64,000 nucleotides of DNA from Rhodococcus wratislaviensis (GTDB lineage: Bacteria > Actinomycetota > Actinomycetes > Mycobacteriales > Mycobacteriaceae), in assembly GCF_900455735.1 (NCBI RefSeq), contig NZ_UAUI01000021.1, positions 62,001 to 126,000 on the forward strand, in the 5' to 3' direction. Of the stretch, positions 15,146-42,710 are shown in pieces (the first letter of the stretch is position 1; every line of letters starts with the position of its first letter). A model generated the notes under the pieces. It was not told the DNA's origin and searched no databases. It worked only from the letters and a program-made list of their open reading frames with translations. Both the position numbers and the translations under genes were made by a program.

Positions 15146-18100
15146 CGCGCCGCCTCCGTCGAAAAGCCTGTGTCGTCCTGATGCACGTACTCCATCGCCA
15201 CCTCCTGGGTGGGCAGGTCGGGATGAGCCTCGAGTCCGGCGAGCAGCCGCTGGAGGTCGGTGAGCATCGCGGTAGCCGTGCTCCGGTCGAAGAGGTCGGT
15301 GGCGTAGTCGAGTTCGAGGGTGTGTCCCGTGGGACCGCGGGTCCACGACAGTCCGAGTTCGGCGGGCGACGGGCCGGCCCGATCGTCACCGCCGTCGCGC
15401 TCCCCGTCGCAGCGCACCGGGAAGTGCTGCACCGCCGAGTCGGCCGCGCGAGGGTCCGCGGACAGCTCCCCGCGTACGGTCTCCACCAGCTCCGGGTAGG
15501 TGGGTTCTCCGGACAGGTCCACGGCGACGAGTCGCGGCGGTGTCCCCGGCCCCGCGACGGTGCCCACCGCCACCTCGTCCTGCGCCGTGTACCAGGCGAG
15601 GAGCGTGAGCCAGGCGGCGAGCAGTTCCGGGTGATCCGGCTGCCCGTCGAGCGTCGCCGTCACCCGTGCGGTCGAGTAGCTCGGCGGTTCCGCGCCGGTC
15701 GAGGGCTGCCGGGGCCGGTCGGCCGGGACCAGGGGCGGTGCCACCAGTCGCGCCGTCGGCGTTGGGGCCGCGTCGGTCAGGAACACGGAAATGGATTGTG
15801 TGCGAGGCGCTTCCGCGACCCCTTCGAGGATGCGGACGTACTCGGCGCACAGCGCGGCGGCAGTCCGCTCGGTGAACAGTTCCGTGCTGAACTCGAGCCC
15901 CGCCGCCATGCCGTCCTCGCCGCCCCGCTCCGTGGTGACGAGGGTGAGATCGAACTTGGCCGTGCCGGACGGCACCCCGCCGAACGCGATGGCCGCGGGG
16001 TCCTCCTGGTCGAACAGCGTCTCCGTGAGCCCTTGCTGCGACTGCAGCGCCGGCAGTTCCTGGTGGACGTGGCAGACGTCGAACAGGGGTGTCCGGCTCA
16101 GGTCCCGGTCGCCGGTGAGTGCGGTGACGACGCGGTCGAACGGGATCTCCTGGTGCTCGAGGGCGCCCAGCACGACATCACGCACGCGGGCGCACAGCTC
16201 GGTGATGCTCGGGTTCCCGGACAGGTCGGCGCGCAGTGCCACCGTGCTGTTGAAGTACCCGATCATTCCGGACAGTTCCGGCCGGTTACGCCCGGTCGTC
16301 GGTGTCCCGACCACGAGGTCGCGCTGGCGGCTGCGGCTCGCCATGAGGAGGTAGAACGCGGAGAGCAGCACCACGAACAGCGACACGGACTCCCTCCGCG
16401 CCACGGCCCGCAGGCTCCGTGTCAGGTCCTCGGAGACGGTGAACGTGTGGAACGCGCCGGTGAAGTTCTTCCGTTCCGGGCGCGGGTGGTCGGTGGGCAG
16501 CCGGAGCACCGGCACATCCTCCAGAACGGTTCTCCAGTATTCGAGTTCGGAGTCGAGCGCGGCACTCGCGATCAGTTCCCGCTGCCACAGGGCGTAGTCC
16601 CAGTACTCGACGGGGAGCGGGGCGAGGTCGGCGCGGCGACCGGCTCGGCGTGCCGCGTACAGGGCGGGCAGTTCCTGTTCGAAGATCCTCGGCGAACCCC
16701 CGTCGTTGACGGAATGGTGGGTGGTGACCTGCAGGACGTGCTCGTCGGTGCCGATCCTGATGAGCAGTGCCCGCACAAGCGGGTCGGTGGCCAGGTCGAA
16801 CGGTGCCACGGCGGCCTCGTGGACGAGGGCCCGGGCCGCGGCCACCGGATCCGGTTCGCCCGACACGTCGGCGGTGCGGAAGAAGTCGCCGAGGGATTCG
16901 CGGATCCGCAGTTCCGGCTCCCCGTCGACCTCGACGTAGTTGGACAGCAGCACCCGATGCCGCGCGGCGAGGTCGTCCCACATTCCCCGGACGGCGGATT
17001 CGTCGATCGGCCCGTGCAATTCGCTGACCATCGGGAGGTTGTAGATGGTCGTGACGGCGTCGAGTTGATGATGGAACCACATGCGTACCTGACCGAACGA
17101 CATCACGTGCCGCCCCCGCGGCACGATCGGGGGTAGCCCACCGGACGCGGACGTGCCGTCCGCGAGGAGTGCGGCGAAGTCTGCGACCTTCGGCCGCTCG
17201 TAGAGGTCGATGAGTTTGGGCCGGACCCCGTACCGGTCGGACACCCGGTCGACGAGTTGCATGCCGATGAGCGAGTTTCCGCCGAGGTCGAAATAGTCGT
17301 CGTCGGCGCCGACGTCCCTCTCGCTGTGGAGCAACTCGCGCAGTGTCGTCTGCAACCAGTCGAGGCTGTCTTCCGGCGCGGCCGTCACCGCTCGGGTGCT
17401 CGGTTCCGCCGAGGGATTGTCCGGCGCGTCGGCCCAGTCGGGTTGGCCCGGGAGGTCGAACCAGCACCGCGAGCCGCGCATCGGGTGGCCGGGAAGTCGC
17501 ACTCGCCAGGCGGAGTCGTCACCACGGTCGACGGCCGCCCAGTCGAGGTCGATTCCCCGCTCGTACAGCCCGGCGAGGAGGTGTGTGACCGCGTCGGACG
17601 TGTCCGGCGCGCGGAGTATTTCGGCGTCCGGCGTGTCGCGGAGAGCGTCGGCGAGCAGCGCGCCGAGGCGTCCCTCCGGGCTCGGCTCCACGAAGACGAC
17701 GGGGCCGTCCGCGAGCATTCCCTTCGCGACGGCGACGAGCCGGTCGGTGTCGATCGAGGGGTCCACGGCCACGGCGGCGATGTCTGCAGCCTCCACCGCC
17801 GACATCGTGTCCCGCAGATACCGGGCCGCGTACCGGGACACGCCACCGCTGAGGACGGCGTCGACGGTGACTCCCGCTGCCCGGAGTTCGCGGTGGACGG
17901 CGATCTGGCCGGCGAGGAGGTCCGCCTCGGCGCCGGTGGCGGGAAGCTCCGACGGCAGGGTGCGGCCGCGCAGTGCGGGCGGCATCCGATCGGGCGACAG
18001 CAGCAACGCCACGGCGGGGCGTTGCCGGGTGAGCGGTGCGGACTCCTCGCGGCGGGCGTGGAGTTCGGCGGCGCACGCAGCGAGCGACTGCGCGAGTTCG

Positions 18101-19566
18101 GCAATGCTGCGTGCGTGCACCGCCACCCGGTGGTCGTGGTGCGGGCGGCCGCGGTTGAGGGTGAAGACCACATCGTCGAGGTCGTGCCCGCGGATGGCAG
18201 TCGCCAGTTCGGCACACAGCGTCGCGAGGGCGCCCACGCTCTTCGCCGACACCCCGACCAATCGAGTCGTAGTGCCGGCGCGGGATCCGACGGCACGCTC
18301 CGGCGGTTGTTCCACCACGCAGTGTGCGTTGATGCCGCCTAGGCTGAACGAACTCACCCCCGCCCGCCGGGGTCCGGTCTCGTCGCTCCACGTCCGGGCC
18401 TCGGTGACCACCTCGATTCCGTTGTCCGCGAGGTCGACTCCACCGGTGGGTCGTTCGAAGTGCAGCGACGGGTACAACTCGCCGTGCTCGACGGCCAGGA
18501 TCGCCTTCACGAGGCCGGACACCCCGGCGGCGTGGTCGAGGTGACCGATGTTGGTCTTCACCGAACCGATCGGCAGTACGCCGGGACGGCCCCGGAACGC
18601 GGTCGTGATCCCTTCGAGTTCGACCGCGTCGCCCAGTGGGGTTCCCGATCCGTGGGCCTCGAGGTACCCGGCATCGTCCGGGGTGAGGCCCGCCTTCTGC
18701 CAGGCCCGGGAGATGACGGCCACCTGCGCCCGGGCGCTCGGGGAGCTGATCGTCGCGGACGAATGCCCGCTGGACACCGTTGCGGTGCCACGGATCACGG
18801 CGTGGACCGGGACGCGATCGGCGCGGGCGCGGGCCATCGTGGTGAGGAGGAGCGCCGCCCCGCCCTCCCCGACCGCGGTGCCGTCCGCGTCCGCGTCGAA
18901 CGCGCGGCAGCGCCCGCCGGGTGACATCAGTTCCGCGGATCCTTCGGCCATGTCCGCGCGGAGGCCGTTCACCCGGAGACTGACTCCGCCCGCGAGGGCG
19001 AAGTCGGCGTCACCCGACCGCAGCTCCCGGCAGGCGTGGTGCACCGCGATGAGCGACCCGTTGCACCCCGAATCGACGGCATAGCAGGGTCCGGTGAGGC
19101 CGAGCTGGTACGCGATCCGGGCCGGTACGGCGAACGGAACGTTGCCCAGGGTGCTCAGCACTCCCGGTTCCGCCCACATCGCCGGATACGTCGAGGTGGC
19201 GGCGCTGAACACCACTGCCGTCGCGCTGTCGCGGAACTCCGCCACCGAGTAGCCGGCGTCCTCGACCGCCTGATACGCGAGGACGAGTGCCAGACGCTGC
19301 TGCGGGTCGATCAGCGACGCTTCCCGTTTCGACAGGGTGAAGAAGGCGTAGTCGAACGTGGAGATGTCCTCGACGAAACCCATCGCGTGGTAGTGGGAGG
19401 GAGGCCCCAGCCCGGTCTCCTTCGCCCGTGACCGCGACAGCGGACGTACCGAATCCCGGCCCGCCGCGAGGTTGGCGCGGAACTCCGCCAGGTCCGCGGC
19501 CTCGGGGTAGCGCGCGGCGATGCCGACCACGGCGATGTCGTCGTCGCCCGGCGTGGGATGTCGCAT
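15142..19566 (-). CDS. Hybrid PKS-NRPS protein: KS-(remnant AT)-T-C-(half C)
   Basis: A 1,474-residue protein. Residues 1-425 are a ketosynthase with the nucleophile Cys in 'VDSGCNGSL' (about 166, usually TACSSS), the first His in 'EAHGSGT' and the second in 'NIGHLDHAAG'. Residues 430-700 look like a shrunken acyltransferase: 'LRAAGVTVDAVLSGGVSRYAA' aligns to the GHSxGE region but has no nucleophile Ser. A carrier domain (GGNSL, about 765), a condensation domain with HHSVNDGGS (about 950) and a C-terminal fragment resembling only the second lobe of a condensation domain (about 1300-1455) follow. No KR, DH or TE is present. The ATG at 19566 has GGAGGAGG 7 nt upstream and lies 22 nt after the NRPS stop. 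It probably adds one two-carbon unit, likely hydroxymalonyl-derived, supplied in trans, then passes the chain to the terminal NRPS. Confidence 0.85.
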   Translation of the reverse strand: MRHPTPGDDDIAVVGIAARYPEAADLAEFRANLAAGRDSVRPLSRSRAKETGLGPPSHYHAMGFVEDISTFDYAFFTLSKREASLIDPQQRLALVLAYQAVEDAGYSVAEFRDSATAVVFSAATSTYPAMWAEPGVLSTLGNVPFAVPARIAYQLGLTGPCYAVDSGCNGSLIAVHHACRELRSGDADFALAGGVSLRVNGLRADMAEGSAELMSPGGRCRAFDADADGTAVGEGGAALLLTTMARARADRVPVHAVIRGTATVSSGHSSATISSPSARAQVAVISRAWQKAGLTPDDAGYLEAHGSGTPLGDAVELEGITTAFRGRPGVLPIGSVKTNIGHLDHAAGVSGLVKAILAVEHGELYPSLHFERPTGGVDLADNGIEVVTEARTWSDETGPRRAGVSSFSLGGINAHCVVEQPPERAVGSRAGTTTRLVGVSAKSVGALATLCAELATAIRGHDLDDVVFTLNRGRPHHDHRVAVHARSIAELAQSLAACAAELHARREESAPLTRQRPAVALLLSPDRMPPALRGRTLPSELPATGAEADLLAGQIAVHRELRAAGVTVDAVLSGGVSRYAARYLRDTMSAVEAADIAAVAVDPSIDTDRLVAVAKGMLADGPVVFVEPSPEGRLGALLADALRDTPDAEILRAPDTSDAVTHLLAGLYERGIDLDWAAVDRGDDSAWRVRLPGHPMRGSRCWFDLPGQPDWADAPDNPSAEPSTRAVTAAPEDSLDWLQTTLRELLHSERDVGADDDYFDLGGNSLIGMQLVDRVSDRYGVRPKLIDLYERPKVADFAALLADGTSASGGLPPIVPRGRHVMSFGQVRMWFHHQLDAVTTIYNLPMVSELHGPIDESAVRGMWDDLAARHRVLLSNYVEVDGEPELRIRESLGDFFRTADVSGEPDPVAAARALVHEAAVAPFDLATDPLVRALLIRIGTDEHVLQVTTHHSVNDGGSPRIFEQELPALYAARRAGRRADLAPLPVEYWDYALWQRELIASAALDSELEYWRTVLEDVPVLRLPTDHPRPERKNFTGAFHTFTVSEDLTRSLRAVARRESVSLFVVLLSAFYLLMASRSRQRDLVVGTPTTGRNRPELSGMIGYFNSTVALRADLSGNPSITELCARVRDVVLGALEHQEIPFDRVVTALTGDRDLSRTPLFDVCHVHQELPALQSQQGLTETLFDQEDPAAIAFGGVPSGTAKFDLTLVTTERGGEDGMAAGLEFSTELFTERTAAALCAEYVRILEGVAEAPRTQSISVFLTDAAPTPTARLVAPPLVPADRPRQPSTGAEPPSYSTARVTATLDGQPDHPELLAAWLTLLAWYTAQDEVAVGTVAGPGTPPRLVAVDLSGEPTYPELVETVRGELSADPRAADSAVQHFPVRCDGERDGGDDRAGPSPAELGLSWTRGPTGHTLELDYATDLFDRSTATAMLTDLQRLLAGLEAHPDLPTQEVAMEYVHQDDTGFSTEAAR

Positions 19567-19588: not shown

Positions 19589-22500
19589 TCAGAACTCGTA
19601 GGTGGCGGGCGCGGACGCCTCGCCCGTGTCGGTGGACTGCGAAATCGCCTCGGCCTGCGCCGCCACGGTGACGAGGTCGAACAGCTGGCCCACCCGCAGC
19701 GCTCCGGGCCACCGCTCGTCGAGACGACGCTGCAGTTCCACGACGCGATGCGAGTTGCCGCCGACGTCGAAGAACCCGTCTTCGGGACCGAAGTCGTCGT
19801 GCCCCAGCACCGCCGCCCAGTACTCGGCGACCGACCGTTGCAGCGCGGTCCAGCGTTGCCGCGACTCGCCGGGCGCAGGCTCCGCCTCGGAGACGAGTGC
19901 GCGCAGCGCGTTCTCGTCCACCTCGCCGTCCGCCGTTCGCGGGACCGCACCGAGTGCGACGAACCGCGTCGGAACCGATCGGGCGTCGAGCCGCCCGGCG
20001 CTGAACGCCCGCAGGTCCTCCGCCATCGGTAGCACGGCTGCCGCGGCCGCCGGGACCCAGAAGGCGGTGACGCCGGCCGCGGTCGTGAGGACCACCGCCT
20101 CGCGGACTGCCGGGTGGCTCTCCACGACGTCCGTGACCGAACGCGCCGGAGACCCGGTGGCGCCGACGCTCAGCAGTCGTCCGGACCGGTTCCACCGCGC
20201 GAGCGTTCCCGTCCGGACCATCCGGGAGCCCGGGGCGCCGAACGGATTCGCCACGAACGTCGTGGCCGCCGCCCGCGCCGAGGTGTGGTGCTCCCGCGTA
20301 TCGGCCACGTACACGGCGCCGGTCACGCCTTCGGGGATGAGCTGCAACCGGGGATCGAGCACGACGGTCTCGGCCGCGGCACTCCATTCGCGAATCCGGG
20401 TGCGCTCGTCCGGGGCCAGCACGTCGACGTCTCCGACGGCGACACCCGGATCCGCGACGAATGCCGCGAGGATCCTGGTGAAACGATCGGCCAGGGACTG
20501 CACGGTCGCCGCATCGAAGAGGTCGGTGGCGTAGGTGAATCCTGCCGTCATCCCTTCCGGTGTTCCGGAGTCGTCGTACTTCTCGCGCACCGTCAGCTGC
20601 AGGTCGAAGAGCGACACCTCGACGTCGGGTTCGAGGACTTCGGCCTCCAGGTGTGGGAGCGCGAGATCGGGGTGCTCGGTGTTCCGGAACTCGAGCAACA
20701 CCTGGAACAGGGGTGAATGCGACTGGGACCGAGGCGGGTTCAGCGCCTCGACGACCCGCTCGAACGGCACGTCCGAGTGGGCGTAGGCCGCGAGGTCGGT
20801 CTCGCGGACCCGTGCGAGCAGATCCTCGAAAGTCCCCGACACGTCGGTCCGCAGGACGAGCGTGTTGACGAACATCCCCACCACGTCGTCGAGGACGGCC
20901 TCGCCGCGGCCGGCGACCGGCGACCCGATCACCACGTCGCCGGTACCGCCCGAGCGGACCAGCAACACGGCGAGGGCCGCGTGCACGACCATGAACACGG
21001 TGCACCGCCGGGTCCGCGCCAACGCCACCGCGTCCCGGTGCACGTCGGCTCCGATCGCGAACGTCACCCGGTCGCCGGACGCAGAGCGCCGCGGCGGGCG
21101 GTCACGGTCCGTGGGCAACGCGGTCACGGCCGGCGCGTCGGAAAGGGTGGATCGCCAGTAGTCCAGTTGGCGCGACAGCAGGGAGTCCGCATCGTCCGCC
21201 GAGCCGAGGAGTTCCCGCTGCCACACTGTGTAGTCGGGGTATTGCACCGGCAGCGGCTCCCATCCCGGCGTGCAGCCCTCGGTCCGCGCGGTGTAGGCCG
21301 TCATCACGTCGCGGGCGAGCGGAACCATCGAGAACCCGTCGGCCGCGATGTGGTGCACCACCACGACGAGGACGTGCTCCCGGTCGCCGAGTGGGAACAG
21401 CCTGGCCCGCATCGGGACTTCGGTGGCGACGTCGAAGCCCGCGGACACGAGTTCCGAGATCTGTTCGCGTACCGCATCGTCGGACGTCGACACGGTGAGC
21501 TGCGCGACGTGGCCCGCACCGACGATCACCTGAGTGGGTCCCGAATCGCCGTACGGGTACCGGGTGCGGAGCGATTCGTGCCGCTCCACCACGTCGGCGA
21601 GCGCGGCGGTCAGTGCGTCGACGTCGAGGTCACCCGACAACCGGACGATCATCGCGACGTTATACGCGGGCGAGGACGGGTCGAACTGATTGAGGAGCCA
21701 CATCCGGTGCTGCGCCCACGACAGCGGCACCGGGTCGGGGCGCCGGGGCACCGCCACGGCGGGCCGGGCCTCTCCGCCCGCGGTCTCGCGCGCGATCCGC
21801 GCCGCGAGCGCCCGCACGGTCGGGGTCTCGAACACGTCCCGCACACCGACATCCGTGTCGAGCGCGGAGTTGATCCGCGCGACCACCTGCGTCGCAGTCA
21901 GCGAGTTGCCACCGGACGCGAAGAAGTCGTCGTCGGCACCGACGACACCGCCCCCGAGAACCTCGGCGAACACGTCGGCCACCGCGGACTCGAACGGTGT
22001 GCCGGGTGCACGGAAGATGCGGGGCGCGAATTCGGGGTCCGGCAGCGCGTGCCGGTCGACCTTGCCGTTGGCCCCCAGCGGCAGCCGGTCGAGGACCGTC
22101 ACCGAGGCCGGCACCATGAAGGGTGCGAGCACGGACCCGGCGAACCGCAGCACCTCGGTCGTGTCGAGGTCCGCGCCGTCCTCCGCCGTGACGTATCCGG
22201 CGAGGACCGCCTCCGCAGCGGGCGTGCGGCGGACGACGACCACCGCCTGCGCGACACCGGGGCAGCGGGTGAGCGCCGCCTCCACCTCCCCCGGCTCGAC
22301 CCGCTGGCCGCGCAACTTGACCTGGAAATCGTTGCGGCCCAGATATTCCAGCCGTCCTTCCTTCGTCCATCGCATCAGGTCGCCGGTGCGGTACATGCGG
22401 GAGCCGGGGTGGTCGAACGGGTTCGCCACGAACGAGGCGGCGGTCGCTCCTGCCCGCCGGTGGTAGCCGCGCGCCAGCCCCTCCCCCAGCACGTACAGCT

Positions 22501-25500
22501 CACCGACCACACCGACCGGCACCGGACGCAGCCACTCGTCGAGGACGAGTTCGCGGACACCGCGCATCGGGTGGCCGATCCGCACGGGGTCGCCGGGTGT
22601 CATCGGGTCGCCGATGTTCGACATCACCGTCGTCTCCGTCGGACCGTAACCGACGAGCAGGGTGCGCCCGGACGCCCAGCGAGCCAGCAACTCCGGCGGG
22701 CAGCGTTCGCCGCCGACGACGAGCGTGCGGAGCAGGCGCAGTCCTCGCGGGTCGATCGTGGCCAGGACCGCCGGGGTGGTGAACGCGTGCGTGATCCGCT
22801 CTGCCGCCAGCAGCTCCGTCAGGGCGGCGCCGCCGTACACCTGGGGCGCCGCGATCACCAGTCGCGCACCGGCGCCGAACGCCATCAGGTATTCGAGCAT
22901 CGTCGCGTCGAACCCGGGTGAGGCGAGATTCAGGACGCGCGAGGCGTTCGTCGTCGCGTACCGGGCGCGCTGATCGATCGTGAAGTTCTGCAACCCCGCA
23001 TGGGGGATCACGACGCCCTTCGGTGCCCCCGTCGACCCGGACGTGTACATCAGATACGCCGGATGGCCCGGTCGCAGCGGCACGACCCGGTCGTCGTCGG
23101 CGATCGGACGGGACTCCCAACGCCGCGTCGGACCGGGATAGTCGAGGAGCAGCCATTCCACGCCGTCCGGCATCCGGTCACGCTGTTCGGCGACGGTGAG
23201 TCCGGCGACCGCCCCGCAGTCGGCGAGGATGTCGGCGATCCTCCCCGGCGGCAGACTCGGATCCACCGGCACGAACGACGCACCCGACTTCGCCACCGCC
23301 CACACCGACACCACCAGTTCCACGGACCGGACGAGCCCGATCGCCACGTGGTCCTCCGGTCCGATTCCGCGCCGGATCAACACCCAGGCCAGGCGGTTCG
23401 ACCAGTCGTCGAGTTCGCGATACGACATCACCGCGTTGCCGTACGACAGCGCGACGGCGTGCGGGTCCCGGGCGGCCGCGGCGGAGAGGATCTCCGGCAG
23501 CAGCCGGGTCGTGCCGGTGGGCCGCCCGCGCACCGGGACGAGTGCCTCGCGTTCGCCGGGGGACAGCAGATCGAAGTGGGCCAGCGGAACGTCGGGGTCG
23601 GCGACCATCGCGTCGAGGAGCCGCACGTATCGTTCGGCGAACTTGCGGACGGTCGCGGTGTCGAAGATGTCGGTGGCATAGGTGAATCCCGCGCTGATCC
23701 CGGCGGGTTCCCCGTCCTCCCCGAATCGTTCGGCCAGGGTCAGCTGCAGGTCGAACGTGGAGACGGAGACACCGAGGTCGATTTCCTCCACGTCCAGTTC
23801 CGGCAGGCTCGGGGTGGGCCGCACGACGTCCTGGAATTCGAACAGCACCTGGAACAACGGCGCGTGGGCCGTGGTGCGCGGCAGAGCGAGTGCCTCGACC
23901 ACCCGCTCGAACGGCACCTCCGCATGCGCGAACGCCTCCAGATCGCGGTCCCGCACGGCGGCGAGCAGCGCGGCGAACGAGTCGGCGCCGTGCACGGGGG
24001 TGCGCAGTGCCAGGGTGTTGACGAACATCCCCACCAGGTCGTCGAGCACGGCCTCACCGCGGCCCGCCACCGCGGATCCGATCACCACGTCGGTGGTGCT
24101 TCCCAAGCGGGACATCAGTACCGCGAACACCGCGTGCGTCACCATGAACACGGTCGCATCGTGTTCTCGCGCAAGGGCTACCACCTTCCGGTGGAGGCGC
24201 TCCCCGATGTCGAACGACTCCCGCGCGCCGGCGAGCGACCGGTGTTCGGGACGTGCGCGATCCATCGGCAGGTCCGTCACGACCGGCGCATCGGCGAGCG
24301 CGGAACGCCAGTACCCGAGCTGGCGGGACATCAGGGAGCCGGGATCGTCCTCCGATCCGAGCAGTGCCCGCTGCCAGATGCTGTAGTCGGCGTACTGCAC
24401 CGGAAGCGGCACCCAGTCCGGCGCGTGTCCCCGCGCCCGGGCGGTGTACGCGGACGTGATGTCCCGGGCGAGCGGGCCCAGCGACAGCGCGTCCGCCGCG
24501 ATGTGATGGACCACCAGGGCCAGGGCGTGATCGTGTGGTCCGGCCTCGAACAGGTGCGCCCGCAACGGAACCTGCGCGGTCACCTCGAAGCCCGCCGACA
24601 GCGCCGCCGCGAGCCGGTCCCGCAGGTCGCTCTCCCCCGACACCGTGACCGCGCGGAGACCGGGTACCGCGTCCGCCGCCGGGATCACCGACTGCACGGG
24701 CGTGTCGCCCCGCATGGGGAAGATCGTCCGCAACGCCTCGTGCCGGTCCACGACGTCGGTCAGCGCCGTGTGCAGCGCCGCGACGTCGAGGGGGCCGCGC
24801 AACCGGAAGGCCGCCGCGATGTTGTAGGCGGGTGACGTCGTGTCGAACTGGTCGAGGAACCACATCCGCGTCTGGGCAAGGGACACCGGCGCCGCCGCGG
24901 ATCGGTCCGTCGCCACGAGCGGCGGCCGGTCGGCCGAGTCCGCCCGGCTCACCCGAGTCGCCAGCGACCGCACCGTCCGCGCTTCGAAGACGTCGCGCAC
25001 TCCCACGCCCGCACCGAGCACACCCTGGATCCGCGCCACGACCTTCGCCGCGATCAGCGAGTTGCCGCCGAGCGCGAAGAAGTCGTCGTCGACGCCGACC
25101 GCGGGCACGCCGAGCAGCGCGGCGAAGATGACGGTGAGCGACTCCTCGACGGGAGTGCCCGGTGCCACGAATTCGGCGCGAGAATCCGTGACGGGCGCCG
25201 GAAGTGCCGCCCGGTCCACCTTCCCGTTGACGGTCAGCGGCAGCCGCTCGAGGACCGTCACCGAGGCCGGGACCATGTACGACGGCAGCGCGCCTCCGGC
25301 GAATTCCAGCACGGCCTCCGGGTCGACGATCGCACCCGCCTCGGGCACCACGTACGCCGCGGGCGCCGGGCCCGTCACCGGATCTTCGTGCAGGGTCACC
25401 ACTGCCTGCGCGACCCCGGCACACCGGCCCAGCACCCATTCCAGTTCGCCGAGTTCCACCCGGAACCCGCGGATCTCGACCTGGAAGTCGTCGCGTCCGA

Positions 25501-28500
25501 GGTAGTCGAGACCCCCGTCGCGTCGCCACCGCACGACGTCCCCGGTCCGGTACATCCGGGCACCCGACGCATCCGCGACGAAGCGGGACGCCGTGAGCCC
25601 GGCGCGGCCCAGGTAGCCGCGCGCGACCTGCGGTCCCGCCACGTACAGTTCGCCCGCCACACCGACCGGCACCGGATGCAGCCGCGCGTCCAGCACCGAC
25701 ACCCGGAATCCGGGAATCGGCCGCCCGACCTTGCTCGTCCACGCGGCCGCGGCGAGCCCGCGACCGAGCGGGAGGTGCGTGACGTGCACCGTCGTCTCGG
25801 TGATGCCGTACATGTTCACGAGCACGGGCGCACCCTCGTCGCGGCGGGAGTACCAGCGTTCGAGTTGCCCGAAGTCGAGCGCTTCGCCACCGAGTACGAC
25901 GTACCGCAGCGGCGGTGTGCCCGCGCCGTCCTCCGCATCGGCGACGTCGATCAACTGCGAGAACGCCGTCGGGGTCTGGCTCAGCACCGTCACCCGCTCG
26001 CGGCGCAGCAGCGCGAGGAACGCGACGGGCGACCGGGTGGTGTCGAAGTCGACGACGACGAGCGTCCCGCCGTGCAGAAGGGCACCCCACAGCTCCCAGA
26101 CCGAGAAGTCGAATGCCGGGGAGTGGAACATCGTCCACACGTCGGTGTCCCCGAAGCGGAACAGATCCCGGGTGCTCGTGAAGAGCGAGACCACGTTGCG
26201 GTGTGACACCGCAACGCCTTTCGGCCGGCCCGTCGATCCCGACGTGTAGACGACGTAGGCCACCGAGTCCGGATCGATCGGTGCCCGTTCCGCGTCGGTC
26301 AGCGGGTCGGCGGAGCCGCCGCCGAGATCCGTGTCCGTCGGATCGAGGAGCAGAACGGGGACGTCCGATGTCGGCAGCGCGGTCGCGGTGTCGCGGGTGG
26401 CCAGAATGCACATCGGGTGGGCGTCGTCGAGGACGAGCCCCGAGCGCTCACCGGGATGGTCCGCGTCGATGGGGAGGTACGCGGCCCCGGCCTTGACGAC
26501 CGCCAGGAGCGCGACGACGAGCGCCGCCGACCGCGGCATCGCGACCGCGACCGACGACTCCGGACCCACCCCCAGCGAGAGCAGGCGCCGCGCAAGGCGG
26601 TTCGAGCGGGCATCGAGGTCGCCGTAACTCATGCGCTCGCCACCCGACACGACTGCCGCGGCGTCGGGGCTCCGCGCTGCCCGGGCGGCGAACAGCGCAC
26701 CGAGTGTCGTCTCGTCGGCGGCATCCGCGGGCCGGGACGACCAGTCCCGCAGCAGGGCACGTTCGGCCGGTTCGACCAGGTCGATGTCCCCGATCACGTC
26801 CGACGGATCCGCGGCGGCCTCGGCGGTCCGCACGAACCGCCGAGCGATTCCCTCCACGGTGGCGGCGTCGAACAGGTCTGTCGCGTAGGTGAATCGGGCC
26901 GTCGTGTCCGAAACCCGCACCCGCAGATCGAGGTCGCCGAGTTCCCCGCCCTGATCCGAGAATTCGAGTAGCACCTGGAAGAGCGGTGCGTGCGACCCGG
27001 ACCGCAGCCGGTCGAGCGCGTCTGCGATTCGGAGGGCGGGCACACCGCGGTGTGCGAACGCCTCCGCGGCCGCGACCCGCACCGTGTCGACGTACTCGCC
27101 GAAGCGGTCCGAACCGCGCACGTGGGTCCGCACCACCACCGGGTCGGTGTCCGTCCGCCTGCCGATGACGACGTCGTCGGTCCGGGCCGATCGTGCCAGC
27201 ACCAGCGCCAGCACCGCATGGATCACGGTGGCGGCGTCCGTGCGGTGTGCGGCCGCCCACGCTTCCAGGCTGCGCCGCAGATCCGGGTCGAGTGCGACGT
27301 CGACGGCGGCGCTGCGATGGGACGGCCGTGCGGGCCGCGGACGGTCGGTAGGCAGGTCCAGCACCGGGGGCGCGTCCGCCAGTGTGCGCGTCCAGAAGTC
27401 GAGCCGGGCCGTCTCCTCGTGGACGGTGCTGAGCGCGGTGTCCGCGTCGGCTGCGACGAAATCGCCCAGCAGTCCCAGGAATTGCCGGTGATGCGCGTCG
27501 ACCTCGTCGGCGTCGTACCGGTTGGGGTTGGCCAGGAAGTGAACGAAGGTCCGGACCGGCGTGCCGCTCCGGTACACGTTGACGAGCAGGTCCTCGACCG
27601 GCCCGGACGTGACGATGTGGTATTCGCCGACGAGCGACCCGAGAGCGAGTTCCTGGTGGAAGAGCATGACGTTGACCATCGGACCCGACAGTGTCTCCGC
27701 CGCACCGGCGCCCGCGTCGCGCCGGATGTCGCCGAGCCCGAAACGCTGGTGTCGCAGCGCGCCCATCAGGTCGAGTTGCACCCGCTCCACCAGCTGCCCC
27801 ACCGTGTCCTCGGGGCGGATCTGCACGGGAAGCGGCACGACACCCGCCACCATTCCGCCGGACCGTCGCAGCGTCGCGGTGGTGCGCGCCGACACCGGGA
27901 TCTTCACGAGCACGTCCCGGCGTCCGGTCGTCCTCGACAGGTAGCAGGCGAACGCGGCGATGATCTTCGCGGTCCCGTGGGCGCCGGCGTCGCCGAGCGC
28001 ACGCTCCGCCGAGTCCGGCAGGGGTGCGGTGACGTCGGTGCTCGTGGCAACCGCGGGCCCGGTCCGCCGGGCCAGGGTCGACCCGGGTCCGAGGCCGCCG
28101 ACCCGTTCGGCCCAGAACTGCCGGTCCGCGGCGAAGCGGCTCGACGACCGGTACTGCTGGTCGGCGTCGTACAGATGCCGGGGGTCCACGGCCTCGTTGG
28201 GCGGCAGTTCCCGGTCGAGCACCTCCGCGGTGTAGCGGGACGCGATGCGGTTGAGCATCGTCATCGCACCGTAGCCGTCCAGGGCGACATGATGAATCTT
28301 GCTGTACCACAAGTAGTGCGCGTCGCCGACGCGAAGAATCGACGATTCGACGAGGCGGTCGCGAGTCGGATCCAGTGGGATCTCGCAGTCGGCGCGGATC
28401 CATCGACGGGCGGCCTCCACCGGTTCGGCGTCCCCGCGGAAGTCCATCAGGCCGATCGACCGGTCCGCCGACGGATCGACCAGTTGGAACGGCTGACCGC

Positions 28501-28726
28501 CCCTGTCGATCAACCGGAGAAAGGGCGACCCGAATTCGTCGGCGGTCGCGACGGTGGCCTCGCGCAGGAGGTCGACGTCCAGGTCGCCGTGCACCTCGAC
28601 GTACTGGGCGATGCACAACGGCACGTCGGGGGCCAGTTGCTGGGCCAGCCACGCCTCATATTGGGCCGAAGACAGCGGGAACGGTGCGTCCGCGCGGCCT
28701 GCGGCCTCGGTATGGTGCTCACGCAA
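19589..28726 (-). CDS. NRPS: C-(half C)-A(Thr)-T-C-A-T-C-(remnant A)-T
   Basis: A 3,045-residue synthetase. C1 (about 1-430) has HHVALDG near 145. Residues 440-640 are a second-lobe condensation fragment. Adenylation domain 1 has specificity residues D-F-W-S-V-G-M-V-H-K, close to the threonine code DFWNIGMVHK. After a carrier domain (GGNSL, about 1220) comes C2 with HHIAADA (about 1405; last Gly replaced by Ala). Adenylation domain 2 reads D-A-L-F-V-G-G-V-M-K, unassigned, followed by a carrier domain (about 2272). C3 has HHIAADG (about 2460). Module 3 keeps only about 165 residues of its adenylation domain, without the ATP-binding and substrate cores and with Glu for the A10 Lys, then a carrier domain (GGNSH, about 2990). 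The TTG at 28726 is preferred because GGAGG lies 8 nt upstream; it overlaps the upstream ligase by 8 nt. GTGs at 28735 and 28732 are too close to that site. Confidence 0.85.
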
Positions 28727-30290
28727 CGCCACCACCTCCGCTGGGCAGCAGCCGGCGCAACGCCGCCTCGTCCACCTTGCTGCTCGGTGCGAGCGGAAGG
28801 GCACCGAGCGCGAGGAAGCGGTCGGGCACCGCCTGCGCGACGAGCCGCTCGGCGCAGTGCGCGATCAGGTCGCGCGGTGTGGGCAGTACGGTCGCCGCGG
28901 CCGCGGGCACCCAGAACGCGGTCAATACCGTCTCCCCGTGTTCGTCGGCGGTCGCGAGAACCACGGCCTGGTGTATCGCGGGGTGACTCTCCAGGACCGC
29001 CTCCACCGCGTGTCTCTCGACCCGGGCGCCGCGCACTTTCACCTGTCCGTCGAATCGGCCCCGGAATTCGATGTCGCCGTGCGGATCGACGCGCGCGAGG
29101 TCACCCGTGTGATACATCCGGGCACCCGGCCGCGCCGCGAAGGGGTCGGCGACGAAGCGGGCCGCGGTGGCGGCCGGGCGGGACGCGTACCCCTCGGAGA
29201 TCTGCGGACCGCCGATGTACAGGTCCCCGACCGTTCCGTACGGCACCTCGACCAGTTTCGCGTCGAGGACGTACGCCGTGCTCGCCCCGAGTGGTCTGCC
29301 GATCGGCGCGATCGAGGCGGGCACGTCGCGCACTGGATGAGCCAGGCAGCTGACGGTCGTCTCGGTCGGACCGTACTCGTTGCTCAGCGGGACCCCGGAC
29401 AGCACCGCTCGATGCTGTTCGACGAGCGTGCCCGGAAGGGCTTCTCCCGCAAGCGTCACCAACCGCAGACGTTCGCGCAGCGGGGTGAGATGCGGCAGCA
29501 GCAGCCGGTAGAAGGAGGGGGTCGCGACCAGGTGGGTGGTCCGCCACGTCCGGGCGAGCGCGGCGACGGCCTCGGCGTCCATCAGTTCGCGGGCGTCCGG
29601 GAGCACACTGGTGCCGCCGGTGCACAACGCCCACAGGGTTTTCAGCAGGGAGCCGTCCCACGTGAGGCGGAACGCGGAGAACGTGACGAGGTCGCCGTCG
29701 TCGAAGTCGTAGTTGCGACCGTCGACCATGCTCGCGAGGTTGGCGCGGCTCGCGACGACGGCCTTGGGGACGCCGGTCGACCCGGACGTGGTGATCACGT
29801 AGGCGGCGGCGCCCGCGGGCACGTCCTCGGGAAGATCGGCCCGTTCGGCGACGGGCGGGTGGTCGGCGTCCCGGTCGTGCAGTGCGGGAACACGTCCGCC
29901 CGCACTCCGGGCGAGTTCCCGGACCGACTCCGGCGACGTCTTCGGATCCGCGGACCCGAAGACGATGGCACCGCAGTCGATGTCGCCGAGGAGCGCGCGG
30001 AGTTGACCCACCGGATGGCCGGGCTCGATGACGCACCACGCCGCACCCAGCCGCAGCGCGGCGATCATCCCCACCACCGTCTCGACGCTCTGCCGCTGGT
30101 GGATCAGCACCACCCGGCCCGGCCGCACGCCCAGGGCCGCGAGTTGCCGCGCCAGTGCCTCGCTCACCGAATCGAGTTCGCGATACGTCAGCGTCCGGTC
30201 GCCCACCACGATCGCGATCCGGTCGGGAACCCGCGCGCACTGGCGGAGGATCCCGGACATCACCCCACCGTTCGCGACCACGTCCGTCAT
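28719..30290 (-). CDS. Stand-alone NRPS adenylation enzyme
   Basis: A 523-residue AMP-forming enzyme with no carrier domain. '[13 protein letters not shown]' is the P-loop core, '[10 protein letters not shown]' the A5 core, '[10 protein letters not shown]' the A7/A8 region, and the A10 Lys is in 'SSKVDE'. The usual FDAS at the substrate Asp is WDGS here. Specificity residues read D-G-L-V-T-A-E-V-S-K, which I cannot assign; the conserved Asp suggests an alpha-amino acid. It overlaps the FkbH-type gene by 4 nt and the NRPS by 8 nt. Its last 100 or so residues, including '[10 protein letters not shown]', are strikingly like the remnant adenylation domain in module 3 of the next protein. It is therefore a candidate to load that module in trans. 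Confidence 0.85.
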
Positions 30291-31330
30291 GGCGCCACGT
30301 CTCCCGAGAGGACCGCGACGTGATCGGCGTTCGGTGCGCCGGCACTGCGAACGTCACTGCACAGCAGCAGCATCCGATCGGGGGTTGGGTCGACCACGTC
30401 GAAGCCCGCGAATCGCAGGGTCACCAGCATCACCCGGTTGACGTCCGTCGGCACGAACTCGGCGAGCGCCCGCCTGCCGTGGGTGCGTGCCCGCTCGACG
30501 ACGTGCCGGATCAGCGCGGTCCCGACCCCTCGGGACATCACCCGGCACGACATCAGCAGCAGTTGCAGGACGGAATCGTCGCCGCGGATCTCCGAGACCG
30601 CGAGACCGATCGTGCCGTACCCGCCGAATCGGTCGCCGAGCGACGCGACGAGCACCTCGTGGTCGTCCGAGGCGCACAGCCGGCGCAGTTCGTCGATGCC
30701 GAAAGTCCGGCCCGTCGTGTTGAGTTGATGAGACCGCACGGTCAGTTCGTGGGCGCGTTCGAGGTCGTCCTCGGTCGCCCGGCGGACCGTCATGACCAGT
30801 TCGAGCGACGCCAGGAATTCGGAGTTGGACCCGCGGAACTCCTGTTCGCTCACCTGACGGATCCGTTCGGCGCGATACAGCGACCTCCGCTGCCTCGCCT
30901 CCTCGGTGACGGCGGGCGGCGTCAACTCGGGAAGGTCGGGGAACGACGCGATCTGCTCGGCCGGATAGCAACGCACCGGGGGAAGCGCCTCGGACACCTC
31001 GGCCCGCTCGACGGGATCGTTGTCGACGAACGCGATGGTGTCCAGACCCAGATTCAGTGTCTCCGCGATGCGGCGCACGGCCTCCGACTTCGGGCCCCAG
31101 CCGACGTCGACGGCGCAGAACAGTTCCTCGATGCCGTGCATGCGCAGGTGCGCGGCGGCGGGTTCGTATTCGCCGCGGCTCGCCACGGCGTGCAGGATGC
31201 CGCGGCGGTCGAGCACGTCCAGGGCGCGGAGGGCGTCCGCTTTCGGCACCGGGGCATCCTGTTCGAGGACGACGCCGTCCCAGATGGTGTCGTCGAGATC
31301 CCAGACCATGCACTTGACCGTCTGCGCCAT
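30287..31330 (-). CDS. FkbH-type glyceryl-ACP synthase (HAD phosphatase/acyltransferase)
   Basis: A 347-residue FkbH-like protein. The N-terminal HAD domain has the nucleophile motif DLDDT in 'MVWDLDDTIWDG' near residue 10 and 'FVDNDPVERAEV' as the acidic loop. The C-terminal part is GNAT-like, with 'SRGVGTALIRHVV'. Characterised FkbH proteins take 1,3-bisphosphoglycerate, remove the phosphate and load a glyceryl group on a discrete ACP. The ATG at 31330 lies 5 nt after the KAS III-like gene, and the 3' end overlaps the adenylation gene by 4 nt. The nearby ACP, acyl-CoA dehydrogenase and hydroxyacyl-CoA dehydrogenase fit hydroxymalonyl-ACP formation. Tetronate clusters also pair FkbH with an ACP and a KAS III, but they lack the two dehydrogenases. 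Confidence 0.85.
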   Translation of the reverse strand: MAQTVKCMVWDLDDTIWDGVVLEQDAPVPKADALRALDVLDRRGILHAVASRGEYEPAAAHLRMHGIEELFCAVDVGWGPKSEAVRRIAETLNLGLDTIAFVDNDPVERAEVSEALPPVRCYPAEQIASFPDLPELTPPAVTEEARQRRSLYRAERIRQVSEQEFRGSNSEFLASLELVMTVRRATEDDLERAHELTVRSHQLNTTGRTFGIDELRRLCASDDHEVLVASLGDRFGGYGTIGLAVSEIRGDDSVLQLLLMSCRVMSRGVGTALIRHVVERARTHGRRALAEFVPTDVNRVMLVTLRFAGFDVVDPTPDRMLLLCSDVRSAGAPNADHVAVLSGDVAP

Positions 31331-31335
31331 CGCGA

Positions 31336-32346
31336 TCACTTCCCGTGCCCGGGTCGATCCGGCAGGCGCCGGAGCAGTGCGCTGCTCCACGCCGCGACCG
31401 GGCTGCTGTTCATGATCACGCAGTAGTCGCCGGGCGCCTGTGCGGACGCCGCGCGCTCGAGGTTCGCCGCGACGTCGACCGATCCGAGGTGGCCGAACCG
31501 GGCCAGGTTGTCGCGGCAGACGGGATCGATGGTGACATCGAGCGCCTCCTGCCAGAACGCGAACGCACCGAGCGACAGGTTCTGCATGAGAAATACGCCG
31601 ATCGCGTCCTGCTGCAGCCCGTTCCGGGCCAGCAGGTCCGCGTTGATCTCCGTGAACCTCTTCCGGCTCTCGACCGCGAGGCGGAACGAGTACGTGGGTT
31701 CGTCGGCGCATTCCTCGACCCAGTCGGCTTCGCGGACGTCGCGGTAGTCGATGTGGAACAGGTCGGCGTATTTTCCGTCGCTGCGGATCATCTGGTCGAC
31801 GAGTTCGTAACGCCCGGTCCCCGACGTCGTCAGCAGGACCGCGGCGGCGCCGTCGCCCAGGAGCGTCATCGGCGACCGGTACCGTGACCGGGTCGGTGTC
31901 TTCGCCGCAGCGACGACGAGGACGTTCTGGCAACGGGGGTCGCCGCGGAGCAACGCCGACGCGAGCGCGAACGCCGCCGAGACGGACACGCACCCGAGGT
32001 CCCCCACACCGGTGGTGAACGCCTGGGTCGCGCCGAGCCGGTGCTGCAGCCGGGTCGTCTCGGATGCGAGCAGATACTGCGGAACCCGGCCCTGGACGAG
32101 CAGCAACGCATCGAGCTGGGTGGCGTCGAGGCCCGCCGTCCGGAGCACCTCGTCGGCCGCGGCGTGCGCCAGATCCACCTCGGAGAGCCCGATTCCGATC
32201 CGCACCGTGTCGATGCCCAGAGACAAGGCGTGCTCGCGCTGAGCGATCGGCAGTTCGTCGAGCTCGGGCAGGCCTGCCACGGTCACCTCGTCGTCCGGGA
32301 ACCAGAGCGCTACCGAATCGATCGTGACCGGTCTGTCAGCGGTCAT
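31336..32346 (-). CDS. KAS III-like (FabH family) protein with altered active site
   Basis: A 336-residue thiolase-fold protein. The nucleophile Cys is kept in 'GDLGCVSVSAA', and 'MTLLGDGAAAVLL' is the usual GDGAGA region. By eye the FabH His of 'PHQAN' aligns to Met in 'FLMQNLSLG', and the FabH Asn aligns to His in 'RFGHLGSVD'. An ordinary decarboxylating Cys-His-Asn triad is therefore not evident. KAS III relatives with changed triads (CerJ, ChlB) act as acyltransferases between carrier proteins and acceptors. In this operon it could move the hydroxymalonyl unit or supply a starter acyl group; both are inference. It overlaps the acyl-CoA dehydrogenase gene by 4 nt. Confidence 0.75.
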   Translation of the reverse strand: MTADRPVTIDSVALWFPDDEVTVAGLPELDELPIAQREHALSLGIDTVRIGIGLSEVDLAHAAADEVLRTAGLDATQLDALLLVQGRVPQYLLASETTRLQHRLGATQAFTTGVGDLGCVSVSAAFALASALLRGDPRCQNVLVVAAAKTPTRSRYRSPMTLLGDGAAAVLLTTSGTGRYELVDQMIRSDGKYADLFHIDYRDVREADWVEECADEPTYSFRLAVESRKRFTEINADLLARNGLQQDAIGVFLMQNLSLGAFAFWQEALDVTIDPVCRDNLARFGHLGSVDVAANLERAASAQAPGDYCVIMNSSPVAAWSSALLRRLPDRPGHGK

Positions 32347-33440
32347 CGCGCACCTCCCCCCAGCACGTACTCACCGATCTGGAGTTCGGCGACCTCCGTC
32401 GCGCCCTCGATGATCTGCATGACCTTGGCGTCGCGGAAGAAGCGACCCACCCTGCTGCCGGGGGCGCATCCCGCGGCCCCGAGCACCTGGACCGCCTGCT
32501 GGCTCACCGACGCGGCGACCCGGGCCGCGGCGTACTTCGCGGCGATCGTCGTGAACAGCGCGCTCGGCTCGTGGGCATCGCGTTGTTCGGCGGCCCGTTC
32601 GCACAGCGCGCGGGCGCCGGCGGCATCGACCCAGCTGCGACCGACGATCGCGCGGACCGAGTCGTGCTCGGACAACACGGCGCTGCCCTGCACCCGGGTG
32701 GAGGCGTGCGCGACGGCGTCGGCGATACACCCGCGCGCCATCCCGGCGCACCCCCAGGCGATGGTGTACCGGCCGTGGTCCAGGGCGGTGCCGACGACGT
32801 GGGACAGTCCGAATCCGGGCGGTGCGATCAGGTGGTCCGCGGGGACGACGACGCCGTCCAACGCGACGTGTGCGATCCGGGCGCCGCGCATACCCAGCTG
32901 TCCGTGGACCGGTTCGACGGACACTCCGGGTGAGTCTGTTTCGACCAGCGCGGTCGTCAGCCCGGCCTGCGACCGGCCGAGGACGAGCAGTACGTCCGCG
33001 ACCTCGCCGAACGTGACCCACAGTTTCCGTCCGGAGATCCGGTGATCCGAGCCGTGCGCCTCGAAACTGGTAGTCACAGAGGAGAGGTCGCTGCCGGCGC
33101 CGGATTCGGTGGCGGCGAATCCGGCGAGGAGTTCGCCGGTCGCCAGGGCCGGCACCCACTGCGCCCGCTGTTCGGCGGTGCCCCACCGATCGAGGGCGGC
33201 GTTCACCATCCCCTGCACGGTCAGCAGCGAGCGCAACGACGTGCAGACCGCCCCGAGTCTTTCTGCGACCGAGCCGAGTTCGGCCGCGTTCAGGCCGAGT
33301 CCCCGGCAGTCCGTCGTCCGATCCAGCCCGAGGACTCCCGCCCGCGCGGCGGCCTCGATGACGTCGACCGGCAGTCCGGTCTCGTCCCAGCTGCCGGCGT
33401 CGGTCTCGGCGGAGGCGACAAGTGTGTCGATTCCGATCAC
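32343..33440 (-). CDS. FkbI-type acyl-CoA (acyl-ACP) dehydrogenase
   Basis: A 365-residue flavoprotein of the acyl-CoA dehydrogenase family. It has 'GFAATESGAGSDLSS' at the FAD/substrate loop, 'ISGRKLWVTFGEVADVLLV', and a 'QIIEGATEV' motif near the C terminus where the family carries its catalytic base Glu. In hydroxymalonyl- and methoxymalonyl-ACP pathways FkbI/ZmaI homologues oxidise tartronate semialdehyde-ACP to hydroxymalonyl-ACP. The GTG at 33440 overlaps the ACP stop by 4 nt and its stop overlaps the KAS III-like ATG by 4 nt, so the three should be translationally coupled. The pathway role is inferred from the gene set. Confidence 0.8.
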   Translation of the reverse strand: MIGIDTLVASAETDAGSWDETGLPVDVIEAAARAGVLGLDRTTDCRGLGLNAAELGSVAERLGAVCTSLRSLLTVQGMVNAALDRWGTAEQRAQWVPALATGELLAGFAATESGAGSDLSSVTTSFEAHGSDHRISGRKLWVTFGEVADVLLVLGRSQAGLTTALVETDSPGVSVEPVHGQLGMRGARIAHVALDGVVVPADHLIAPPGFGLSHVVGTALDHGRYTIAWGCAGMARGCIADAVAHASTRVQGSAVLSEHDSVRAIVGRSWVDAAGARALCERAAEQRDAHEPSALFTTIAAKYAAARVAASVSQQAVQVLGAAGCAPGSRVGRFFRDAKVMQIIEGATEVAELQIGEYVLGGGAR

Positions 33441-33736
33441 GGCGACGCCCCGTCCGTCGCACGAAGCTGCTCGCCCCGCTTTCTCCGAATGAAGCCCGCC
33501 ACCCGCGTTGCGGTACGGAAGTTGTCGAGATCGAGATCCTCCACCTCGACCACGACGTCGTGGGAGCCCTCGATGTACGTGACGATCTCCAGGGCCCGCA
33601 ACGAACTCACCAATCCCAGGGTGAAGTAGTCGTCGTCGGGACCGAGTTCCGTCGACGTGATCGAGCTCAGGTACTTCCGTAACTGCTCGACCAGCTCGTC
33701 ATGGGACCCGGGCACAGGGGCATTTGCTGTGTCCAT
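33437..33736 (-). CDS. Discrete acyl carrier protein, FkbJ/ZmaD type
   Basis: An ACP of 99 residues. The phosphopantetheine Ser lies in 'LGLVSSLRALEIVTYIE', where the usual Asp-Ser-Leu is Ser-Ser-Leu; I recall the glyceryl/hydroxymalonyl ACPs having this same Val-(Ser/Asn)-Ser-Leu form. It would carry glyceryl, then hydroxymalonyl, between the FkbH-type enzyme, the two dehydrogenases and the PKS. The ATG at 33736 is chosen over a TTG at 33769, but neither has a clear ribosome binding site. It is the first gene of the biosynthetic operon and lies 44 nt after the last sulfur-operon gene. Confidence 0.8.
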   Translation of the reverse strand: MDTANAPVPGSHDELVEQLRKYLSSITSTELGPDDDYFTLGLVSSLRALEIVTYIEGSHDVVVEVEDLDLDNFRTATRVAGFIRRKRGEQLRATDGASP

Positions 33737-33780
33737 GCGCCTGGGATTCCCATTTGGACCAGCGTTCAATCATCGTGCTC

Positions 33781-35834: not shown

Positions 35835-35836
35835 GC

Positions 35837-37995: not shown

Positions 37996-37999
37996 GATG

Positions 38000-40808: not shown

Positions 40809-41725
40809 CGCACTTCCCTCTGTTCGAGTGCATGTCCGAGTCGGTGCGCCGACAGCACGACGGCCACGATCACCAGTCCGGGCAGGGTGGTCATCCACCA
40901 CGCGGTGGCGAGGTAGTTCCGGCCCTCGGAGATCAGCGAGCCCCACTCCGGGGTGGGCGGCACCGCGCCGAACCCGAGGAAGCTCAGCGACGACACCGCG
41001 AGGACCGCCATCCCGAACTCGACGGCGGCGAGTGCCACGACGGGCGCGTACGAATTCCGCAGAACGTGGCGGCGCAGCACCGTGTGCCAGCGGACACCCG
41101 ACGCGAACGCCGCCTCGACGTACAGCGACCGGCGCACGCGCAGCACCTCCGAACGCATCACGCGGGCGAAGTTCGCGATCAGCGACACGCCCACCGCGAT
41201 GGCCACGTTGACCGTGCCGAACCCCAGCGCGGTCACCAGAGCGAGCGAGAGCAGCAGGGCGGGGATCGACAGGAGGACGTCGACGACGCGCATCAGGACG
41301 GCGTCCAGCGCGCCTCCGACGGCACCGGACAGCAGGCCGATCAGCGAACCGACGACCAGTGCGATGCCCACGGCCAACAACGTTGCGGTCAGCGACAATC
41401 CGGCGCCGTGGACCACGCGGGTATACACGTCGCGGCCGATGTTGTCGGTGCCGAACCAGTGCGCGGCACTCGGCGCCTGCAGTTTCTGGGCGGGCACCCC
41501 GACCAGCGGGTCGCCGCTCGCGAACACCGACGGCGCCACCGCGAATCCGACCGCGACGAGGAGCACGGCGGCCGAGGCCACGAGCACGAGATTACGACGC
41601 AACCACGTCACCACGCGGCGTCCGCGGCTGTCCGACTCGGACGCGATCACGGGCGGCGGTTCGACCGGCGGAGTGCCGAAACCCTCGGCCTCGTCGATCA
41701 GTTCCCTGGTGAGGATGTCAGACAT
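40805..41725 (-). CDS. ABC importer permease (DppC/OppC type)
   Basis: A 306-residue inner-membrane protein with six predicted transmembrane helices after a soluble N-terminal stretch of about 45 residues. It shows the DppC-type features '[19 protein letters not shown]' before the core and the EAA-type coupling loop '[26 protein letters not shown]'. It forms the transmembrane pore with the gene upstream. The ATG at 41725 has AGGAG upstream and overlaps the first permease by 8 nt, while its stop overlaps the ATPase start by 4 nt. Confidence 0.88.
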
Positions 41726-42707: not shown

Positions 42708-42710
42708 GGC

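What the first reader, a model, noticed from the sequence alone, without database searches (positions are those of the whole stretch)
19890..30290. A module without its own adenylation core may be loaded in trans by the stand-alone adenylation enzyme
Seen: the third module of the 28726-19589 NRPS runs C, then about 165 residues of adenylation remnant (20395-19890), then a carrier domain. The ATP-binding and substrate-pocket cores are missing and the A10 Lys is Glu. The stand-alone enzyme at 28719-30290 has all cores and no carrier domain. The two share an unusual tail: ESHPA, then [26 protein letters not shown] and VDE-AL in the same order. Inference: the free enzyme and the remnant share origin, and the free enzyme now charges the module's carrier domain.
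Basis: partly seen in the sequence, partly recalled or inferred. Interest (0 to 1): 0.8.

Follow-up and report, generated by a model that had tools for sequence, protein, structure and literature searches.

The report
Split peptide-synthetase module with free loader
A peptide-building enzyme has one station without its own amino-acid loader, and the free-standing loader enzyme beside it is very probably that station's missing part, because in related bacteria the same loader and the same station's carrier are still one protein.

Summary
Module 3 of the NRPS (28726-19589, minus strand) is C - adenylation remnant (~157 residues) - T; the 523-residue free adenylation enzyme (30290-28719, also minus) has all cores and no T. 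The remnant's C-terminal half is uniquely close to the free enzyme: 61% identity, 75.6 bits, against 30.3 bits for the best of 101 further matches in the genome. Its N-terminal half is not; it resembles ordinary NRPS A domains, so the remnant is a chimera.

Main new evidence: in all 37 clusters found outside the genus, the free enzyme's ortholog is fused to a T domain. In the 9 put in a tree, that T groups with T3, apart from 53 other carrier domains. In the 14 clusters found in this genus, A is free and T3 sits at the end of the NRPS (in one, G019, across two contigs). The free enzyme and T3 thus look like two halves of one ancestral A-T protein, which supports trans loading. Loading was not shown; no structure could be run.

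A-less modules loaded in trans are known (SyrE, CmnI, SidD). New here: the fused/split pair and the conserved chimeric scar.

The parts
28719..30290 (-). stand-alone adenylation enzyme (SA), 523 aa, all cores, no carrier domain; ancestral partner of T3
   Evidence: fused to a T in 37/37 clusters found outside the genus
19589..28726 (-). NRPS: C(starter-like)-half C-A1-T1-C2-A2-T2-C3-[A remnant]-T3; start codon uncertain (open frame to 28804)
20399..21730 (-). C3 domain, HHIAADG intact
20141..20362 (-). remnant N-terminal half (A6-A7 region), ordinary NRPS A type; A8 hinge lost
19892..20140 (-). remnant C-terminal half: Asub of the SA family, A10 Lys replaced by Glu
19643..19831 (-). T3 carrier domain, GGNS intact; groups with the T fused to SA in outgroups
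19592..19609 (-). C-terminal tail PATYEF, like the [YF]E[LV] tail of the fused A-T proteins; docking to the KS protein is inference
15142..19512 (-). AT-less KS-T-C protein that follows T3 (gene start uncertain)
30287..31339 (-). FkbH-type glyceryl loader (start uncertain)
   Evidence: TIGR01686 250 bits
31336..32346 (-). KAS III-like protein, possible transacylase (inference)
32343..33440 (-). acyl-CoA dehydrogenase family protein
33437..33769 (-). discrete acyl carrier protein; rival target of SA
14285..15139 (-). 3-hydroxyacyl-CoA dehydrogenase family protein (start uncertain)
7057..14298 (-). downstream NRPS: half C-A-T-E-C-A (frame ends inside the second A)
2762..7099 (-). continuation of downstream NRPS: T-C-A-T-TE

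Best explanation
The free enzyme and T3 are the two halves of one ancestral A-T protein. In the ancestor of the clusters found in this genus, an NRPS gene came to lie between A and T. The C domain of its last module was joined to the T by way of a chimeric A remnant: A6-A7 from an ordinary NRPS A domain, Asub from the SA family. A stayed behind as a free gene that overlaps the NRPS frame. SA activates an amino acid and charges T3 in trans; C3 condenses the upstream peptide onto it; T3 passes the chain to the AT-less KS protein, probably helped by its conserved C-terminal tail. Shown here: common origin of the Asub halves, grouping of T3 with the fused T, free A in 14 of 14, intact C3 and T3 motifs, low pN/pS. 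Inferred: the loading reaction, the amino acid, the docking role of the tail, and the order of events.
For: Remnant tail to SA 75.6 bits, next of 101 further matches 30.3. Tails: 37 rows in one group, 100/99. T3 (14) plus T of fused A-T (9) form one group 98/97, apart from 53 other T/ACP rows. A-core tree: fused and free SA rows together, 21 rows 100/100. Fused A-T in 37/37 clusters found outside the genus (5 of them, 32); free A in 14/14 inside. ACP, acyl-CoA dehydrogenase, KAS III and FkbH lie beside the fused A-T in 9 of 9 clusters (the four g23 loci and the five Streptomyces loci), the 3-hydroxyacyl dehydrogenase in 8 of 9, the ninth contig being short, and the KS protein follows A-T. C-terminal [YF]E[LV] tail in 36/37 fused proteins; YEF in 13/14 T3 proteins. 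SA code DGLATAEVSK in 13/14 of the genus, A10 Lys in 23/23 SA rows. Uncorrected pN/pS against 12 genomes: Asub remnant 0.08-0.37, T3 0.09-0.34, C3 0.19-0.32.
Against: No biochemistry; no structure or complex could be run. Trees of about 98 columns with many open forks, bootstrap not settled, and in the T tree a warning that the T3/A-T branch meets the long ACP branch. The T profile was built partly from T3 and nine of the fused proteins. Co-occurrence in the same 14 genomes is weak, since the genes are neighbours. The A10 Lys survives in 3 of 14 remnants. The inserted NRPS is not shown to be the ortholog of the C-ending NRPS of the outgroups, so the path is open. No MbtH-like protein was seen in the window with one loose recalled motif, a weak test.
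Confidence: 0.86

Rival explanations
1. SA charges the discrete ACP (33437-33769) to make an amino-acid-derived extender unit, as a stand-alone A enzyme does, by my recall, for aminomalonyl-ACP in zwittermicin; T3 is silent or served by something else.
For: The cluster has a discrete ACP, an acyl-CoA dehydrogenase, FkbH and a 3-hydroxyacyl dehydrogenase, and SA lies next to them.
Against: The ACP, acyl-CoA dehydrogenase and FkbH are also present in 9 of 9 clusters in which SA carries its own T, so the ACP need not be SA's carrier. FkbH accounts for the ACP's load. T3, not the ACP, groups with SA's fused T.
Confidence: 0.05
2. T3 is charged by a neighbouring cis A domain (A2 or A1), as SidD A1 loads T2 and CmnA-A1 loads CmnI; SA has another role.
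For: Published precedents for truncated-A or A-less modules loaded by an A of another module (PMC10192304, PMC12400406; passages).
Against: T3's nearest relatives sit on SA's own polypeptide. SA keeps all cores at low pN/pS and has no other obvious carrier.
Confidence: 0.06
3. Module 3 is a dead relic that the line skips; the remnant and T3 are decaying.
For: The remnant lost A1-A5, A8 and mostly A10, and in G019 shrank to about 85 residues.
Against: C3 HHIAADG and T3 GGNS intact in 13 of 13 and in G019; pN/pS of C3 and T3 well under 1; T3 is the carrier placed to feed the KS protein.
Confidence: 0.03

Closest known systems
Syringomycin SyrE module 9 / SyrB1 (review PMC8949500, passages)
   Same: C-T module without an A domain; amino acid supplied by a separately encoded A enzyme.
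   Different: SyrB1 is an A-T and needs the shuttle SyrC; here the free enzyme has no T and would load T3 directly.
SidD / Nps6 module 2 with truncated A, dA (PMC10192304, passages)
   Same: Module keeps only the C-terminal part of an A domain (about 290 aa missing) and its T is charged by another A.
   Different: Fungal; loader is A1 of the same NRPS; nothing in the passages read about a loader once fused to that T.
Capreomycin CmnI loaded by CmnA-A1 (PMC12400406, abstract and passages)
   Same: Bacterial A-less module loaded in trans, shown by protein mass.
   Different: Loader belongs to another module and also serves its own T; here the loader is free-standing.
WS9326A trans A enzymes Cal22/Cal23 (PMC7539972, abstract and passages)
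   Same: Trans A enzymes encoded apart from the modular NRPS, shown essential by knockout.
   Different: Encoded as A-PCP; no A scar in the receiving module is mentioned in the passages read.
Foxicin FoxBI (A) and FoxBIII (PCP-TE) (PMC5318452, outline and passages)
   Same: A and its proposed PCP are on proteins separated by a PKS gene; FkbH present.
   Different: No A remnant beside the PCP is mentioned; origin by splitting not discussed in the passages read.
NRPS recombination rule: Asub-T interface kept (PMC8097286, abstract and passages)
   Same: Here too an SA-type Asub stays next to its T while Acore is lost.
   Different: The paper treats exchange of Acore inside working modules, not expulsion of A to a free gene.

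Membership tests
A-less NRPS module served by a trans-acting free A enzyme | C and T present with intact active-site motifs, no complete A in cis | tested here: met
A-less NRPS module served by a trans-acting free A enzyme | free A enzyme with all catalytic cores in the same cluster | tested here: met
A-less NRPS module served by a trans-acting free A enzyme | evolutionary link between that A and that T (not required elsewhere, but strong here) | tested here: met
A-less NRPS module served by a trans-acting free A enzyme | aminoacylation of the T by the free A | not testable with these tools
   needs purified proteins
SidD-type truncated A (dA) module | N-terminal Acore missing, C-terminal part retained before T | tested here: met
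   the retained part is chimeric
SidD-type truncated A (dA) module | T charged by an A of the same NRPS | not tested
   judged less likely here
SyrB1/Alb04-type free A-T didomain | free A carries its own T | tested here: not met
   SA ends 0-33 aa after its match in 13/13 other genomes of the genus and 8 aa after its tail here; met only in clusters outside the genus
FkbH-based hydroxymalonyl-ACP-type extender set | FkbH, ACP, acyl-ACP dehydrogenase and 3-hydroxyacyl dehydrogenase together | tested here: met
   presence only; that this set defines the pathway is recalled
FkbH-based hydroxymalonyl-ACP-type extender set | makes hydroxymalonyl-ACP | not testable with these tools
   needs enzymology

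The most novel reading that the evidence does not exclude
Module 3 of this assembly-line family may always have been split between two proteins, but at a moving point: C | A-T in the relatives (11 of 13 clusters examined encode an NRPS that starts with a starter-like C and ends in a bare C domain) and A | C-T here. The retained chimeric Asub beside T3, without A8 and mostly without A10 Lys, would then be a selected docking piece that presents an embedded T to a free A enzyme: a natural way to turn cis loading into trans loading.
Probability: 0.3. Interest if true: 0.7.

Novelty: new variant of a known kind. Interest (0 to 1): 0.5.

Why it matters
It gives a matched natural fused/split pair (37 fused clusters, 14 split) for turning a cis A-T unit into a trans-loading pair inside an elongation module. 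That makes it possible to ask which surface lets a free A find one carrier among several, and what the Asub scar is for, which is useful for NRPS engineering. It also warns that a prediction by collinearity would miss this residue.

Tried and rejected
Rejected: the whole remnant as a copy of SA (the N half is not); co-occurrence of SA and remnant in the same 14 of 28 genomes as independent support (neighbouring genes); the idea that the inserted NRPS is the moved ortholog of the outgroups' C-ending NRPS (a quick tree places its starter C with other starter C domains, 97 SH-aLRT; the A tree nears A1 to them only weakly and together with other NRPSs, 85/80). An earlier count said 12 of 13 C-ending NRPSs; the recount is 11 of 13, one cut by the fetched end (N417) and one without (N462). 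The 13 clusters are a choice of mine out of 37, by contig room. In the nine g23 clusters among them a second NRPS also ends in C and no TE was seen, so the C | A-T reading is clearest only in the four Streptomyces-type clusters, where a TE lies on another gene (TE profile from one window sequence).

Mended on checking: my FkbH query was translated out of frame, so its rows there are void; one search repeats it in frame.

Led nowhere: substrate prediction. The pocket code DGLATAEVSK (positions from my recall of the GrsA PheA motifs) shares 7 of 10 letters with a Tyr code that I recall and no search confirmed (not in the main text of PMC12283262), and 5 of 10 with a His code printed there (DSALIAEVWK). 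The product was not identified. A survey of Rhodococcus clusters (PMC5550956, passages) counts 79 NRPS families and may include this one among its unnamed ones; its tables were not read. Searches that showed me no description of this cluster or of such a scar: in an open-access library only and mostly as listings.

Rows dropped: two duplicate T3 rows; from the A tree six copies of SA, the other A rows of G007 and G015, and four close SA rows; the tool there reports three changes for the SA label because two unlabelled rows inside the group are themselves SA. G019 is not in the pN/pS table. One search compared the remnant with only 32 other tails; one search covers the genome.

Full report
The window is contig C15:62001-126000 of an unnamed 7.78 Mb genome. 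From genome size, NRPS number and family I take it to be a Rhodococcus; no tool named it. The two other main genera are likewise unnamed (g23, probably Nocardia; g52, probably Streptomyces). Only the loci carry names; those used as outgroups are L031, L032, L033, L035 and L036 (Streptomyces albidoflavus, sp. NP-1717, daqingensis, adelaidensis, fragilis).

Observation. All genes concerned are on the minus strand. NRPS 28726-19589 reads C-half C-A1-T1-C2-A2-T2-C3-remnant-T3. Between C3 and T3 Pfam sees only a sub-threshold AMP-binding_C. The free enzyme, 30290-28719, is a complete A domain ending 8 residues after its tail, and its stop overlaps the NRPS frame by at least 8 nt. The tail similarity is exceptional: in the own genome the remnant Asub scores 75.6 bits and 61% with SA, the next of 101 further matches 30.3 bits. 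The remnant is chimeric: its A6-A7 part fits ordinary NRPS A domains (N3A 168, A2 164) better than any of 23 SA-family rows (best 115, rank 30 of 57).

Distribution. SA orthologs occur in 14 of 28 genomes of the genus, own included, and the remnant-T3 unit in the same 14. Domain order is the same in 12 of the 13 other genomes, with G010 read in two overlapping frames; the NRPS of G019 is cut, its remnant and T3 lying on another contig. The remnant is kept in 14 of 14, shortened to its Asub half in G019. A10 is Glu in 7, Ala in 2, Thr in 1, Asp in 1 and Lys in 3.

Outgroups. A family sample of 351 genomes added four clusters in genus g23. A search of 150 genomes of g23 found 29, these four included. 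A class sample of 394 found three in g52 besides the own genome. In all 37 (29 + 3 + 5) the SA ortholog is followed in the same open frame by a T domain (5, 32); the T profile was built partly from T3 and nine of the fused proteins. In the genus the SA frame ends 0-33 residues after the match in 13 of 13 others.

Orthology of the carrier. In a tree of 76 carrier domains, T3 of 14 genomes and the T of nine fused proteins form one group at 98/97, apart from 53 others; T3 alone is 98/80, and five of the nine fused T stand nearer to it than the other four. Tails: 37 remnant and SA rows group at 100/99 apart from 32 other tails; the remnants group at 97/79. A cores: 21 SA rows, fused and free, 100/100. 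Short alignments, an unsettled bootstrap and a long-branch warning limit. The fused proteins end in [YF]E[LV] in 36 of 37, the T3 proteins in YEF in 13 of 14, and both are followed by the same KS-T-C protein where the neighbourhood was read. So T3's downstream partner is probably unchanged.

Function kept. C3 HHIAADG and T3 GGNS are intact in 13 of 13 and in G019. Uncorrected pN/pS against 12 genomes: Asub remnant 0.08-0.37, T3 0.09-0.34, C3 0.19-0.32, SA core 0.16-0.34, remnant N half 0.18-0.55. The Asub half is thus constrained about as much as T3 although its A8 hinge is gone and its A10 Lys mostly lost, which points to a structural rather than catalytic role (inference). This fits the published rule that the Asub-T interface is kept in NRPS recombination (PMC8097286, abstract and passages).

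Mechanism (inferred). SA activates its amino acid and charges T3 in trans, C3 joins the upstream peptide to it, T3 hands over to the AT-less KS protein, whose extender is probably made by the FkbH/ACP/dehydrogenase set (FkbH by TIGR01686). The discrete ACP is unlikely to be SA's partner: it is present, with FkbH, in 9 of 9 relatives in which SA has its own T. The amino acid is unknown.

History. The ancestral state is A-T, judged by the outgroups. In 11 of 13 outgroup clusters examined the stretch also encodes an NRPS with a starter-like C and a bare C at its end; in the four Streptomyces-type clusters a TE lies on another gene, so that NRPS plausibly feeds the A-T protein. If so, module 3 was already split, at another point. 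The NRPS now between A and T3 is not shown to be its ortholog: its starter C groups with other NRPSs, while C2, C3 and the cluster's own N3C group together (quick tree).

Known or new. Trans loading of A-less or truncated-A modules is established (PMC8949500, PMC10192304, PMC12400406, PMC7539972; abstracts or passages only). I saw no description of this cluster or of such a fused/split pair in the searches listed under Tried and rejected. Hence new variant of a known kind.

Noticed in passing
window 7057-14298 (-): The two A domains of this gene are identical over about 1480 nt (1435 + 45) of DNA, pointing to very recent gene conversion or an assembly artefact.
   Followed up: partly
window about 7057-7100 (-): A frameshift in the second identical copy splits the NRPS into 7057-14298 and 2762-7099; three of three relatives looked at (G005, G015, G025) have one uninterrupted ORF of 3875-3894 aa there, so it may be a sequencing error.
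   Followed up: partly
window 15142-19512 and 30287-33769 (-): An AT-less KS-T-C protein with an FkbH/ACP/dehydrogenase set and a KAS III-like protein, which may be the missing transacylase (role is inference).
   Followed up: no
window 7057-14298 and 19589-28726 (-): The downstream NRPS begins with a half C domain with [10 protein letters not shown] where HHxxxDG is expected, and the upstream NRPS has an extra C-terminal half of a C domain after its starter-like C.
   Followed up: no
L155/L191, L193-L195 and other outgroup stretches: NRPS genes that begin with a starter-like C and end in a bare C domain in 11 of 13 outgroup clusters; one cut, one without.
   Followed up: partly
window about 33781-48252 (-): A run of luciferase-like monooxygenase genes with ABC peptide-type transporter genes directly upstream of the cluster (named from reading the translations, not from a search).
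   Followed up: no
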